Virus record (IMG/VR): IMGVR_UViG_3300017971_000507
Coordinates: 1 to 38,026 of that record
Reading direction: 5' to 3' (one strand)
Source of the DNA: a virus
DNA length: 38,026 bases
Part shown: positions 1 through 38,026 of the stretch, in pieces
Position numbering within the stretch: position 1 is the stretch's first letter
Layout of the letters: the number at the start of each line of letters is the position of its first letter
Position numbers and translations under genes: made by a program
Notes under the pieces: model-generated
Told to the model about the DNA's origin: nothing
Database searches by the model: none
What the model saw: only the letters and a program-made list of their open reading frames with translations

Positions 1-11
1 CAGATGTCCAT
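1..11 (-). CDS. Start of a gene cut by the window edge (begins Met-Asp-Ile-Cys)
   Basis: An ATG at 11-9 follows a strong ribosome-binding site (GGAGGAATAAAA) and reads ATG GAC ATC TG before the window ends. The same start and leader occur at 1652, where the gene begins MDICKCGS. This is therefore probably the first codons of a paralogue of that zinc-ribbon/coiled-coil gene. Only the first three full codons are visible. Confidence 0.5.
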
Positions 12-13
12 TT

Positions 14-193
14 TTATTCCTCCTTCGGAGGCTCGGGTAGTTCTATCTCCTCAATACGCGACACTCTATATGTAAATGCTTCCTCCACTGTAATATCATC
101 ATCTTGCGGAAGCTCATAATTGACGGACTTGACAGATATTCGGCCATCTTCTATCGCCTCAATTAACTCTTCAATCTTTTGTTTCGATATCAT
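14..193 (-). CDS. Small acidic hypothetical protein, 59 aa
   Basis: The function is not recognised. The ORF starts at ATG 193 behind a good Shine-Dalgarno (GGAG, 8-nt spacer) and ends at TAA 16-14. The first 20 residues are helical and charged (ISKQKIEELIEAIEDG). The C-terminus is Pro/Glu-rich (ELPEPPKEE), and its last codons double as the Shine-Dalgarno of the next gene. The same Pro/Glu-rich ending occurs in the proteins ending at 1655 and near 1284, so the 3' end belongs to a repeated module. It is too short for any family assignment, but spacing and codon content fit the neighbouring genes. Confidence 0.6.
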   Translation of the reverse strand: MISKQKIEELIEAIEDGRISVKSVNYELPQDDDITVEEAFTYRVSRIEEIELPEPPKEE

Positions 194-204
194 TTCAGTT
201 GCTC

Positions 205-564
205 CTAAAAAGATGCTTTATAATTTGGGCTACTGCATGAGGGGCAGTAGGTATCCTCATCTTCCAATTTTTCACATGCCTGCTTATGATCCTTTTCACA
301 AAGTATCTTCTGATGAAACATTTCAATGAAAGCATTACAGCAATTGAAAGAGTTTGGAAGCGCGGCAGGTTTCATCTTTGCATTAATGATCTTCTCAATG
401 TCTTCGGGAGACAGCATCTCCGCGCTCTCTTTCTCGATAGCCTCAATTAGTTTATCTGCTTTGTACCGGAATCGCCCATATTGAAAAGAGTTAATTCCCG
501 TCCAGATAATGGCCGCGATACATAAAGCTCCACTTATAATATATATAGGTGTATCAATTTTCAT
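205..564 (-). CDS. Small membrane-anchored Cys-containing hypothetical protein, 119 aa
   Basis: One N-terminal transmembrane segment is visible (about residues 6-26, rich in I, A, G and L). A charged helical stretch follows (about 30-60, KADKLIEAIEKESAEML). The C-terminal half holds Cys pairs (NCC, C90/C97 and CPSC near residue 107) that could bind a metal. The start ATG 564 overlaps the stop of the preceding gene as ATGA. Its Shine-Dalgarno (GGAGGAAAG) lies inside that gene's last codons. The topology suggests an inner-membrane protein with a cytoplasmic coiled-coil and a zinc-binding tail. The function is unknown. Confidence 0.6.
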   Translation of the reverse strand: MKIDTPIYIISGALCIAAIIWTGINSFQYGRFRYKADKLIEAIEKESAEMLSPEDIEKIINAKMKPAALPNSFNCCNAFIEMFHQKILCEKDHKQACEKLEDEDTYCPSCSSPNYKASF

Positions 565-743
565 CTTTCCTCCAGTTCCTCCACGCGGGCGCGAAGGGCG
601 TCGCGTTCGGCTTTTAACTCAGCAATTTTGTTTTGCACAACTGGTTGATTCAGAATGTCTTTGTTTGTTGCATTAACATAGCGCATAACATCCAATTTAT
701 CATCCGGCGACCCCACCCAAACAAATAATTGCGGCGTGTTCAT
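561..743 (-). CDS. Small protein ending in the LRARVEELEER coiled-coil module, 60 aa
   Basis: The first 25 residues (NTPQLFVWVGSPDDKLDVMR) are not recognised. The second half is a heptad coiled coil ending ALRARVEELEER. The DNA for LRARVEELE is nearly identical in four genes of this region (cores at 580, 1173, 1543 and 1863). The last codons, GAGGAACTGGAGGAAAG, also form the Shine-Dalgarno for the ATGA-overlapping downstream gene. The start ATG 743 has GAGGAAACGAA upstream. This is probably a small structural or adaptor protein. No function can be assigned. Confidence 0.6.
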   Translation of the reverse strand: MNTPQLFVWVGSPDDKLDVMRYVNATNKDILNQPVVQNKIAELKAERDALRARVEELEER

Positions 744-1654: not shown

Positions 1655-2107
1655 TTATTCCTCCTCCGGCAGCTCGGGTTCGTCGATAATCTCTTTGACT
1701 TTCACCAGTCCCTCCACGCTGCCAAAATTATTTCCGTCGGCAATCTTTCTTATTCGGTCTAACTTGGCACGGAGCTTCCCATTTTGTTGTTTTAATTTGT
1801 CTTTGAGTCCGCGATGGTACTCTACCGACTCATCGAGTTCTGCTGCATGTTCTTCCAGCTCCTCCACGCGGGCGCGGAGCTGTTCCACCTCCTCAATCAA
1901 CGCCGGTACGGCGTCACAGGCGGTACGATAAAACCTGGCGTCTCTATTAGGGGCAACAGCGTCTTTACCGAAAGAGCATATTTCACCCGGTCTGCCAGCA
2001 GGCATGAGAGCACTTACTTTACCGTGACTAAAAAATTCAACGTAAGGCCCCGGAGTCGCCGCTTTCTTCACTAGCTTCCACTCTTCAATCGTTTCTTTCG
2101 GAATCAT
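1655..2107 (-). CDS. Phage Ea22-like hypothetical protein with long coiled coil, 150 aa
   Basis: The N-terminal third (AATPGPYVEFF ... DARFYRTACDAVPALIEEVEQL) resembles phage ead/Ea22-like proteins, which carry an AA-x-PGPW segment and an A-x-FIA-x-A-x-D-VPALL segment before a coiled coil. The middle (about residues 75-120) is a long heptad region that includes the LRARVEELEEH copy. The C-terminus is acidic (IIDEPELPEEE) and encodes the next gene's Shine-Dalgarno. The start ATG 2107 has AAAGGAG created by the second copy of a 17-bp tandem repeat. Ea22-like proteins have no settled function. Confidence 0.65.
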   Translation of the reverse strand: MIPKETIEEWKLVKKAATPGPYVEFFSHGKVSALMPAGRPGEICSFGKDAVAPNRDARFYRTACDAVPALIEEVEQLRARVEELEEHAAELDESVEYHRGLKDKLKQQNGKLRAKLDRIRKIADGNNFGSVEGLVKVKEIIDEPELPEEE

Positions 2108-2118
2108 TTTGTTTTCTC

Positions 2119-2152
2119 CTTTAACCCCGCACGCACTTTAACCCCGCACGCA
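2119..2152 (-). repeat. Perfect 17-bp tandem duplication
   Basis: On the minus strand TGCGTGCGGGGTTAAAG occurs twice in direct succession (2152-2136 and 2135-2119). The first copy encodes the last Cys-Val-Arg-Gly and stop codon of the DUF1566-like tail. The second copy is non-coding and supplies the AAAGGAG ribosome-binding site of the following gene. Confidence 0.9.
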
Positions 2153-2257
2153 ACGGACATAGTTGGCGGCGTCCTTGTCGTCGTAGCTCACGTAGCCGTA
2201 GTTGAAGTTCACGTACCACGCGAAGACCTTGGGTAGTTTGTCTATTTGTAATCTCAT
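2138..2257 (-). CDS. Orphan DUF1566-like C-terminal tail resembling a DGR variable region, 39 aa
   Basis: The ORF reads MRLQIDKLPK followed by VFAWYVNFNYGYV, SYDDKDAANYV and RCVRG. The last 28 residues match the extreme C-terminus of DUF1566/C-type-lectin-fold proteins (aWyVnFnnGnv ... yvRcVRg), which often carry diversity-generating-retroelement variable regions. The codons at the usual variable sites are TAC, TAC, AGC, TAC, GAC, GAC, GAC, GCC, GCC and AAC. All can be derived from AAC by adenine substitution alone. ATG 2257 has GGAG with a 7-nt spacer; an in-frame ATG at 2287 would give 49 aa. The body of the lectin fold is missing, so this is a remnant or a chimeric small gene. Confidence 0.6.
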   Translation of the reverse strand: MRLQIDKLPKVFAWYVNFNYGYVSYDDKDAANYVRCVRG

Positions 2258-2297
2258 GCATTCTCTCCAGTGGGGCCGTTCCGTCATCGTTGCCTAT

Positions 2298-2756
2298 TCA
2301 CCACAATCGACCTTCACGTACAAATTCAACCATTTCATCTGTTATGTTGTCTCCGGTTGGAACTGCTTTGATCATCGTAAAAGGAAACCGCGCATTGTAC
2401 TCCTCACAAAGCCTTTTGTTGATATCCTGCCATTTCTCCCCGTGACCCTCTTCATAAGGGATGTGTGGCCCAACAACTACGTGTGCCAATTCGTGCATCA
2501 ACACACTAACAACAAAAATGAGAGGCAGATTTGGATTGATAAGCACCCTGGCCCTGTTCGGTGCTGCGTGAAAGATCGTCATTCCAGCGGCACCGTTCAA
2601 AATTTCAAAACAAATATCGCAAGATGCTCCATAAAGCACCTCATAAATTTGCAAAGCTTCGCGCAACGGGTCAAATGGCAATTCGCATCGCGAAGCTTTT
2701 GGGGGTGTAAGGTTGGATGGTTCTGTAATGAAAATACCAGGATATTTTGCGGTCAT
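2298..2756 (-). CDS. SprT-like zinc metallopeptidase-fold protein, 152 aa
   Basis: The core motif is LMHELAHVVVG (H88, E89, H92) followed by EEGHGEKW, where H105 is the likely third zinc ligand. HExxH plus a downstream HG-x-x-W/F is the signature of the SprT/WLM group of small metallopeptidases, some of which act on DNA-protein crosslinks. The upstream hydrophobic strand and helix (VLINPNLPLIFVVSVL) fits the fold. The length is normal for a catalytic domain alone, and no C-terminal zinc ribbon is seen. The substrate is unknown. Proximity to DinG and a nuclease allows, but does not prove, a DNA-repair role. Confidence 0.7.
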   Translation of the reverse strand: MTAKYPGIFITEPSNLTPPKASRCELPFDPLREALQIYEVLYGASCDICFEILNGAAGMTIFHAAPNRARVLINPNLPLIFVVSVLMHELAHVVVGPHIPYEEGHGEKWQDINKRLCEEYNARFPFTMIKAVPTGDNITDEMVEFVREGRLW

Positions 2757-4010: not shown

Positions 4011-6079
4011 GGTGAACTCACGTTCACTTCGCTTTTATCCTTCTCGGCCAAGAATTGAGCAATCTCATTCCTCTTCAGGCCACCGAGACGTGTCATTCGG
4101 GGCAGGCTAGAAACAAAAATCGAACCATACCCTTTGGTAACCAACCTATTATCTAGGATCACCACAACTCCCCTATCGTCACGTCTCCGTATCAACCTCC
4201 CCACACCCTGTCTAAACTGCAAGACCGCCCTCGGAACCGACACTTTCCAAAATCCCTGCCCATTGCCTGCGGCCTCGCCCAAAGCATCCAAGACAGGATC
4301 TCCCGGCGCTGGAAAAGGGATCTTGTCAATCACTAAGCAGCTCAATGCTTCTCCCGATACATCTACTCCTTGCCAAAATGATTCCGTACCGAGCAAGACA
4401 GAATCAATATTAGATCGAAATTCTTCGACCAGGGCGGTTCGGGGTGCCTCACCTTGGACCAGGAATGTAAATTGCGGCAGCTCTTTCCGTAAATATTCTG
4501 CCGCATAATTCAACATCCTATACGATGTGAACAAACCCAAGGTGCGCCCCTTTGCCTGCTCTATAATCGCAACCATGTTTTTAGAGACACGCTCCGCATA
4601 GTCGGAGCACTTCGGATCGGGAGCATTTTTACTCAAGAGAATACGCGCTTGTGATCGCCAATCAAACGGAGACTCAACCACAATCTCCCGCCCCTTCTTC
4701 ATGCCCACCTCGTCGCGCACATAGGAACAGTCGCCCTCAATCGCCATAGTAGCCGACGTGACAATTGTTGAACGTGTCTTCATAAACATTTCGTCCCACA
4801 ATAGATCGGCAACTTTCAGTTTTCGCTTAACCAGCCGCAACTTTTGACTCCGGCCAAACTTCTCTAAATAGTACACACCATTGTCGTCTGCCAAGTCTCG
4901 ACATTCACGAATCTGTTCTGCAACCTTAATACAGAGCAACCCCTGCTTCTCCAGATCCGATTTGTGATCGGCAGAAATGGGTAGCTTTCTTAGATTAGCA
5001 AAGGCCCGGCTACTATCCGTAAGGGTCTGAGCCAACGCCGCTCCACCAATAGTGTCTCGATCTCTGATTCGAAATGCACCCTTACTGTCACCATAGAAAG
5101 CATCCATCTCCCGCCAATAAGCATCCATCTGACTCTCAATGGTACTGGCCAGTTCTCGATATTTTTCAGAATCACCCAACTGCCCCGTCGCAAAACCCCA
5201 CTGAACACCTTTTCTCAGCTTGTTCGATAAGCGTGTAATCGTATACCTAGAAATGGTCCAACCAAAAAAATCTCTAGCTATATCAGCAACCCGATGACCC
5301 TCGTCACAAATCAGATAGTCAAAAGGGGGAAAAACGATGTCCATGCCAGTCTCTTCGCGCACCCTGATCGCAGCAAAAAGCAAGTGATAATTGGTCACAA
5401 TAACATCCATGAGTTGCAACGCTCCGCGAGCTTTGTTCGCAAAACATTTATCAGAAAACTCACATGTGCTTCCCGTGCATTCTTCTGCTGTCACTGAGAA
5501 CTGTGACCAGACATAAGAAGGGGGCTGAAACGTCAACTCGCTTTTATCTCCAGTCTTCGTTTCTTTCGACCACTTACAAATGGCCCGCTCCACCTCGGAC
5601 ATTACCGGGTAAACTTTCTCAACAGGTACATCCATCACGTTCTTGCCAAATTCCAAAAGACCCTGAGCCTTATCTTTCCGAAACTCATCCAGGGAGTATT
5701 GGCACAAATAATTATTACGACCCTTAACCATCGCAAACGTAAAGGGGTCCGGCAACGCTTCTTGTAAAAAAGGAAGATCCTTCTCAGCCAACTGCTCCTG
5801 CAGCGCAATATTGGCCGTGGCAACAATTATCCGATTGCTCTCCGGCCTGTCGTCATTGTGCGGCCCCGCCTTTCTCGTTAGCACTTGACGAATCGCAGGC
5901 GTAAGGTACGCCAAACTTTTGCCACTCCCACATGGACCCTCGGCTGCTACATGATAACCCTCGGATATGCCTCCCTCAATAGCCAACGACAGATCAATCT
6001 GCGGCTGTCTCAGCTCATAGCCAGGAAGTTGTTTGGAAAAAAACCCACCCGGCTCAAAAACTTGTCGTATCGTCCACAT
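4007..6079 (-). CDS. dinG: DinG-type iron-sulphur XPD-family helicase, 690 aa
   Basis: This is a superfamily 2 5'-3' DNA helicase acting on forked and RNA-DNA structures. Visible motifs (numbered from the TTG at 6085) are Walker A GPCGSGKS at 50-57, the DEGH box at 261-264, and C-terminal motif VI GVGRLIRRRDDRG. Four cysteines (128, 203, 208, 214) have the spacing of the DinG 4Fe-4S cluster (C-x74-C-x4-C-x5-C). The length is normal for DinG. ATG 6079 is preferred over TTG 6085 because AAAGG lies 9 nt upstream of it. A GAAC-N4-GTTC operator lies about 85 bp upstream in the only sizeable gap, so damage-type regulation is plausible. Confidence 0.92.
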   Translation of the reverse strand: MWTIRQVFEPGGFFSKQLPGYELRQPQIDLSLAIEGGISEGYHVAAEGPCGSGKSLAYLTPAIRQVLTRKAGPHNDDRPESNRIIVATANIALQEQLAEKDLPFLQEALPDPFTFAMVKGRNNYLCQYSLDEFRKDKAQGLLEFGKNVMDVPVEKVYPVMSEVERAICKWSKETKTGDKSELTFQPPSYVWSQFSVTAEECTGSTCEFSDKCFANKARGALQLMDVIVTNYHLLFAAIRVREETGMDIVFPPFDYLICDEGHRVADIARDFFGWTISRYTITRLSNKLRKGVQWGFATGQLGDSEKYRELASTIESQMDAYWREMDAFYGDSKGAFRIRDRDTIGGAALAQTLTDSSRAFANLRKLPISADHKSDLEKQGLLCIKVAEQIRECRDLADDNGVYYLEKFGRSQKLRLVKRKLKVADLLWDEMFMKTRSTIVTSATMAIEGDCSYVRDEVGMKKGREIVVESPFDWRSQARILLSKNAPDPKCSDYAERVSKNMVAIIEQAKGRTLGLFTSYRMLNYAAEYLRKELPQFTFLVQGEAPRTALVEEFRSNIDSVLLGTESFWQGVDVSGEALSCLVIDKIPFPAPGDPVLDALGEAAGNGQGFWKVSVPRAVLQFRQGVGRLIRRRDDRGVVVILDNRLVTKGYGSIFVSSLPRMTRLGGLKRNEIAQFLAEKDKSEVNVSSP
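4012..4027. promoter_or_regulatory. Operator-like palindrome GTGAACTCACGTTCAC (box 1)
   Basis: The inverted repeat GTGAAC-N4-GTTCAC has perfect 6-bp arms. It lies at the 3' end of dinG, directly upstream of the nuclease start at 4010. On the minus strand a GATAAA element precedes it, with TTGCTC 17 bp further up as a possible weak -35. It shares the 12-bp core GAACTYRCGTTC with three other sites in the window. Confidence 0.65.
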
Positions 6080-37579: not shown

Positions 37580-38026
37580 AGTACAAACCTATAAGCACCA
37601 TACCATAATAAGGGAAAAAAACAAAGAAAAAAGAGAATTCAATTTCTCCGCATTCCCACCCTCCCCCAAAAAAATTTCGGGACGTCTAGGGCCAGGCCAG
37701 AAATTACAACTTCTCCCCATATCGGATCAAAAATGCTGCGTTTTATTCTTTTTTTCCATAGGGTAATCAATTTTTTCTCATCTCTTTCTATTTCAAAATC
37801 AAATTTTAGAAAAAGAAGGAAGAAGGAGAAGAACGCATGCCGCTAGGCATGCAGCTCTGCTTCTTGGTTCTGCTTATTTGTTTTTCTTAAGTGGATCTTC
37901 TTATGGGTGCAATGAATTGCACCCCCCCCCCCCCCCCCTTTTACAACCCCACTTCACCCCCCCACTCCCCCCCCCCCCCCCCCACCCCCATCCACCCCCC
38001 CCCCAACCCCCTACACCCCCCCCCCC
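37580..38026. other. Non-coding right end: AT-rich leader, two perfect hairpins and poly-C tail
   Basis: No convincing minus-strand gene is present. Positions 37600-37830 are AT- and purine-rich and probably hold the promoter of the first gene (several TATTAT/TATGGT-like elements). GCATGCC-gcta-GGCATGC (37835-37852) is a perfect 7-bp hairpin. GGGTGCAA-tgaa-TTGCACCC (37905-37924) is a perfect 8-bp hairpin. From about 37922 the sequence is almost only C with scattered A and T, and looks like a sequencing or assembly artefact. Confidence 0.7.
37837..37890 (+). CDS. Possible tiny hydrophobic peptide, 17 aa, plus strand
   Basis: ATG 37837 follows GGAGAAGAACGC and opens MPLGMQLCFLVLLICFS, then TAA. 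The peptide is a single hydrophobic segment. It would be the only plus-strand gene and overlaps the 37835-37852 hairpin. There is no further support, and chance occurrence in an AT-rich stretch is quite possible. Confidence 0.2.
   Translation: MPLGMQLCFLVLLICFS

What the first reader, a model, noticed from the sequence alone, without database searches (positions are those of the whole stretch)
2119..2287. Orphan diversity-generating-retroelement-like variable region fused to a tiny ORF
The minus-strand ORF ends in a DUF1566 C-terminus (FAWYVNFNYGYV ... NYVRCVRG). At the positions that are AAC in typical DUF1566 template repeats, this copy has TAC, TAC, AGC, TAC, GAC, GAC, GAC, GCC, GCC and AAC. 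All are explained by changes at A only, with the third-position C kept each time. That is the hallmark of mutagenic retrohoming. The rest of the lectin-fold protein is missing, no reverse transcriptase or template repeat is visible in the window, and the end of the region is duplicated as a 17-bp tandem repeat. It may be a displaced or failed retrohoming product, or a new minimal target.
Basis: partly seen in the sequence, partly recalled or inferred. Interest (0 to 1): 0.8.

Follow-up and report, generated by a model that had tools for sequence, protein, structure and literature searches.

The report
Stranded DGR variable repeat in phage
A phage genome fragment carries just the last 28 codons of a hypervariable lectin-type gene, bearing the adenine-only mutation pattern of a diversity-generating retroelement but with neither the rest of the gene nor the machinery nearby; it is probably a clipped relic or remote target, interesting but not a new kind of system.

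Summary
Window 2141-2224 (-) encodes FAWYVNFNYGYVSYDDKDAANYVRCVRG-stop, the last 27 positions of Pfam Lcl_C/DUF1566 (E 2.4e-5). I found 48 bacterial and 3 viral loci with the same tail. In eight loci (seven of these, plus a gut phage record) an AAC-rich copy lies just before a reverse transcriptase: genuine DGR template repeats (TRs). Against the closest one (L016, Nitrospirae MAG), 14 of 31 adenines at codon positions 1+2 differ in the window copy, but 0 of 25 non-adenines (Fisher 4.6e-5); the other 9 differences are third-position. This is the pattern shown by L016's own two variable repeats (13 and 15 adenines, 0 non-adenines). So the copy is a diversified variable repeat (VR), not chance and not a TR. 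Unusually, it has TR-like extent: no DUF1566 body precedes it, only 73 bp back to a SprT-like gene, with an in-frame ATG and Shine-Dalgarno giving a 39-aa ORF. No RT or TR is in the 38-kb fragment, which holds only replication-type genes. Absence therefore proves little: in related phages the RT lies at least ~16 kb from its targets. Best reading: a truncated DGR target tail, diversified in trans. Ectopic cDNA capture, a minimal live target, or misassembly remain open.

The parts
2141..2224 (-). diversified DGR variable-repeat tail (28 codons, F22-G49 of the 49-aa ORF), DUF1566/Lcl_C C-terminus
   Evidence: Pfam Lcl_C positions 91-117; adenine-only differences at codon positions 1+2 from the L016 template repeat
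2225..2227 (-). codon GTC just before the tail; compatible with one more AAC-derived codon, so the repeat may start here
   Evidence: same position reads AAC in the L016 and L039 TRs and GTC/GAC/GGC in phage VRs; inference
2138..2257 (-). 39-aa ORF (MRLQIDKLPKV + tail), the most likely translated form
   Evidence: in-frame ATG at 2257-2255 with GGAGAG at 2268-2263, 5 nt upstream (read from sequence)
2138..2287 (-).
2119..2152 (.). exact 17-bp tandem duplication (2 copies) spanning the end of the tail, the stop codon and the junction with the next gene's ribosome-binding site
   Evidence: Tandem Repeats Finder, 100% match
2298..2756 (-). upstream neighbour, SprT-like putative metallopeptidase, 152 aa; its stop is 73 bp from the tail
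   Evidence: Pfam SprT-like E 3.4e-5, just under the cut-off
1655..2107 (-). downstream neighbour, 150-aa coiled-coil phage protein

Best explanation
The segment is the 3' terminal variable repeat of a DUF1566-type DGR target, written by mutagenic retrohoming (reverse transcription of an AAC-rich template with errors at adenines) by an RT and TR outside this 38-kb fragment, either elsewhere in the phage genome or in its host. The rest of the target gene is gone: a deletion or illegitimate recombination joined a phage gene start (Shine-Dalgarno, ATG, MRLQIDKLPKV) in frame to the repeat, leaving a 39-aa ORF. A later slippage event duplicated 17 bp across the new 3' junction. Shown: homology to DGR tails, adenine-only pattern, VR-class composition, absence of body, RT and TR in the window. 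Inferred: that the source was a phage-borne target gene, that loss was by deletion, and that the peptide has no binding function because the C-type-lectin scaffold is missing.
For: Adenine-only differences at codon positions 1+2 from the L016 TR: 14/31 A against 0/25 non-A, all three substitutions seen (6 T, 6 G, 2 C), equal to L016's own VRs (13/31 and 15/31, both with 0/25). Eight relatives' TRs sit directly before a DGR RT. Of 87 related copies, VR-class ones follow a body or a long upstream frame, and copies without a body are TR-class; the window alone is VR-class (10 of 24 adenines at variable sites, real TRs 17-24) without a body. Related phages carry several short DUF1566 VR genes with one RT well away (L053/L054: RT at 121,952 on the 190-kb record, VR-bearing stretch 138,092-154,169), and one of those genes (L053 8782) appears broken by a frameshift between body and VR, so decay of extra targets does occur. 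Targets more than 370 kb from the RT are published (PMC3521204).
Against: The copy begins within about one codon of where short TRs of this family begin to match their VRs (L052, L031, L003, L055), a coincidence a random deletion need not produce. No trace of the DUF1566 body remains. The frame is open and has a well-placed Shine-Dalgarno, which could mean a kept gene. No close relative of the phage was found to show the ancestral state.
Confidence: 0.5

Rival explanations
1. Displaced retrohoming: a mutagenised cDNA of a short TR was captured at a non-cognate phage site (or recombined from another VR), so that a TR-length diversified segment was inserted next to the SprT-like gene.
For: The homologous unit has TR extent (about one codon before GCGTGG to the stop), as in the short TRs L052, L031, L046, L003, L055, while its letters are VR-like. 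Flanking genes are phage genes on both sides.
Against: No target-site duplication flanks it: both copies of the 17-bp repeat are at the 3' end. [quoted passage not shown] Other TRs of the family (L016, L035, L039) reach about 45 bp further upstream, so TR extent here is unknown.
Confidence: 0.2
2. A live minimal target: the 39-aa peptide is a maintained, still diversified DGR target in a phage whose RT and TR lie outside the fragment.
For: Open frame, Shine-Dalgarno 5 nt before ATG, fits as one gene in a tightly packed gene row; no nonsynonymous change at non-adenine sites; RT well away from targets is seen in related phages.
Against: The C-type-lectin scaffold that displays the variable residues is absent. 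VR-class copies with an intact frame in the fetched loci have a body or long upstream frame. No population variation could be tested.
Confidence: 0.13
3. Assembly artefact: a VR shared among several loci led the assembler to join unrelated sequences.
For: DGR repeats are shared sequences; the contig's left end (1-38) is itself a 92% repeat of 1642-1679 and the right end is low-complexity poly-C, so assembly at the ends is imperfect.
Against: The tail is enclosed by phage-type genes on both sides with similar G+C (0.45-0.50), which would need two false joins within 200 bp; the 5' junction has no obvious repeat to drive a join.
Confidence: 0.12
4. Ordinary DUF1566 tail shaped by normal selection, unrelated to a DGR.
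For: DUF1566 tails not shown to be DGR-linked also vary at these positions: a Leptospira tail differs at 18/31 adenines.
Against: That control also differs at 7/25 non-adenine sites, against 0/25 here. All variable codons keep third-position C, and the best DNA match among phage records is a DGR TR next to an RT (L003).
Confidence: 0.05

Closest known systems
DUF1566 (Pfam PF07603, Lcl_C) DGR target genes with C-terminal variable repeats, e.g. L016 (Nitrospirae MAG JACRPZ010000031.1) and IMG/VR phages L053/L054
   Same: tail sequence AWYVNF..G.V....K....YVRCVRG, NNC variable codons, adenine-only nonsynonymous differences from the TR, stop right after the tail
   Different: no DUF1566 body, no RT or TR within the record; ORF of 39-49 aa against about 100 aa or more for full phage targets
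DGR template repeats preceding the RT (L016, L031, L035, L039, L046, L052, L055, gut phage MT835523/L003)
   Same: length and extent of the segment; several also lack a body
   Different: they are AAC-rich (17-24 of 24 adenines at the variable sites against 10 here) and lie next to an RT
Remote or non-coding VRs reported before (Pseudogulbenkiania sp. NH8B targets more than 370 kb from the RT; a VR in Pelodictyon phaeoclathratiforme outside any identifiable coding region; PMC3521204)
   Same: VR separated from its RT or without a proper gene
   Different: those lie in genomes where the RT and TR are known; here neither is seen

Membership tests
DGR variable repeat of DUF1566 type | sequence homology to the DUF1566 C-terminal variable tail | tested here: met
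   Pfam Lcl_C 91-117, E 2.4e-5; 51 related loci, up to 71% identity over 28 aa
DGR variable repeat of DUF1566 type | differences from the TR confined to template adenines (synonymous drift aside when a relative's TR is used) | tested here: met
   14/31 A against 0/25 non-A at codon positions 1+2 versus the L016 TR, Fisher 4.6e-5; own TR unknown; more distant TRs show 2-11 non-A differences
DGR variable repeat of DUF1566 type | located at the 3' end of a C-type-lectin-fold target gene | tested here: not met
   73 bp of unrelated sequence between the SprT-like stop and the tail; no YWSS/FWSS body motif
Complete DGR system | DGR reverse transcriptase | tested here: not met
   none in the 38-kb record; the rest of the phage genome is not available
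Complete DGR system | template repeat | tested here: not met
   best window match to the L016 TR other than the tail itself is 41/84; no exact pattern match in IMG/VR or GTDB contigs, nor with 3 mismatches in 775 sampled genomes
Complete DGR system | ongoing adenine-site variation in the population | not testable with these tools
   no reads, no close relatives
Template repeat (alternative identity) | adenines (AAC) at the variable codons | tested here: not met
   10 of 24 adenines against 17-24 in eight real TRs

The most novel reading that the evidence does not exclude
A mutagenised DGR cDNA can be captured at a non-cognate phage locus and fused to a small gene's start, seeding a new minimal hypervariable peptide gene diversified in trans.
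Probability: 0.15. Interest if true: 0.7.

Novelty: new variant of a known kind. Interest (0 to 1): 0.42.

Why it matters
Multi-target DGRs are thought to spread by duplication of whole target genes (PMC3521204). A diversified repeat with template-like extent and no gene body would, if it arose by cDNA capture, show another route by which hypermutation targets move. If it is a deletion relic, it is a fossil of DGR activity in a phage fragment that RT-centred surveys would miss: the largest survey says it cannot see targets away from the RT (PMC8144416).

Tried and rejected
Exact DNA patterns of the tail with adenine sites left open gave nothing in viral or genome contigs, nor with 3 mismatches in 396 genomes of L016's phylum and 379 of L014's phylum. 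The single-protein viral search gave one chance match inside a terminase-like gene in the wrong frame (L002). The helicase query found no relative in IMG/VR. The SprT query found no phage-record match and one 37% relative without any repeat (L060). A hairpin after the tail, as in some DGRs, is not supported (fold z-score 1.1). Considered and rejected: that the segment is a TR (adenine content), and that it is chance (0 in shuffles).

Full report
What is there. The window is a virus record of 38,026 bases held as a linear record. Its genes, nearly all on the minus strand, are of replication and nucleotide-metabolism type: helicases, DnaB-like helicase, UvsX-like recombinase, ThyX, Dam methylase, two ParB-like proteins and a Gp157-like protein. 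No structural gene was recognised among the proteins I scanned, so this is probably part of a larger phage genome. At 2138-2287 (-) a 49-aa ORF ends in FAWYVNFNYGYVSYDDKDAANYVRCVRG. Its last 27 residues match the last 27 positions of Pfam Lcl_C, formerly DUF1566 (E 2.4e-5).

Is it a DGR product? I used the tail as a query and fetched 48 bacterial loci (Nitrospirota, Desulfobacterota-type, Elusimicrobia, Campylobacterales, KSB1 and others) and 3 viral loci. In eight loci (seven of these, plus gut phage L003) an AAC-rich copy lies directly before a reverse transcriptase, for example L016: TR 4988-5071, RT match from 5091. Against that TR the window differs at 23 of 84 bases: 14 are adenines at codon positions 1 or 2, 9 are third-position differences, and none of the 25 non-adenine bases at positions 1+2 differ (Fisher 4.6e-5). 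L016's own two VRs give 13/31 and 15/31 adenines with 0/25 non-adenines. A Leptospira DUF1566 tail not shown to be DGR-linked gives 18/31 and 7/25. The replaced adenines became T (6), G (6) and C (2). More distant TRs show some non-adenine differences, as expected from divergence between systems. The tail is therefore a diversified VR. The closest match in annotated phage DNA is likewise a TR next to an RT, in the unannotated gut phage MT835523.

What is odd. Of 87 related copies, those of VR-class composition follow an in-frame DUF1566 body or a long upstream frame; copies with no body are TRs. One phage VR gene (L053 8782, also in L054) has body and VR in different frames, that is, it looks broken. 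The window copy has VR composition (10 of 24 adenines at variable sites) but TR extent. Its homology starts at TTC-GCG-TGG, or one codon earlier, and 73 bp of unrelated DNA separate it from the stop of a SprT-like gene. An ATG at 2257-2255 with GGAGAG 5 nt upstream would give the 39-aa peptide MRLQIDKLPKV + tail, which fits as one gene in a tightly packed row. An exact 17-bp tandem duplication (2119-2152) includes the stop codon and the junction to the next gene's ribosome-binding site. Because it contains the junction, it most simply arose after the junction formed (inference).

Where are RT and TR? Not in the window. This is weak evidence for an orphan: in phages L053/L054 several DUF1566 VR genes lie at least 16 kb from the RT, and published targets lie over 370 kb from theirs (PMC3521204). 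The Roux survey states that it cannot detect remote targets (PMC8144416). I could not find the cognate TR in the collections searched, so the donor is unknown.

Mechanism. Most likely the tail was written by mutagenic retrohoming in trans and later lost its gene body by deletion or illegitimate recombination, leaving a short ORF (0.5). Capture of a mutagenised cDNA at a non-cognate site (0.2) explains the TR-like extent better, but lacks target-site duplications and any known mechanism without homology. A live minimal target (0.13) and misassembly (0.12) are not excluded. Ordinary DUF1566 divergence (0.05) is poorly supported.

Verdict. 'Orphan' and 'failed retrohoming' are not shown. This is an unusual state of a known element, not a new kind of system.

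Noticed in passing
window 1-38 and 1642-1679: The contig's left end is a 38-bp, 92% identical repeat of a stretch between two small early genes, so the assembly probably broke in a repeat.
   Followed up: no
window 569-611, 1162-1204, 1532-1574, 1852-1894: Four small early ORFs share a conserved GC-rich stretch encoding an ARVEEL-type coiled-coil piece (CTCCACGCGGGCGCG), as if a module had been copied between genes.
   Followed up: no
window 37922-38019: Low-complexity poly-C/A stretch at the right contig end, likely an assembly or sequencing artefact.
   Followed up: no
window 166-206 and 2080-2120: The ribosome-binding site and start region of the gene at 2107 is 80% identical to that of an ORF near 206: duplicated gene-start cassette.
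   Followed up: no
L003 3915-5336 (MT835523.1) and L055 7926-9269: In these two phage records the template repeat lies in frame inside the 5' part of the reverse transcriptase ORF.
   Followed up: partly
L053 and L054 (IMG/VR, 190 kb and 125 kb records): Near-identical large phages with several scattered short DUF1566 VR genes and a distant RT; one VR gene (L053 8483-8923) appears frameshifted between body and VR. Their TR was not found within 18 kb around the RT.
   Followed up: partly
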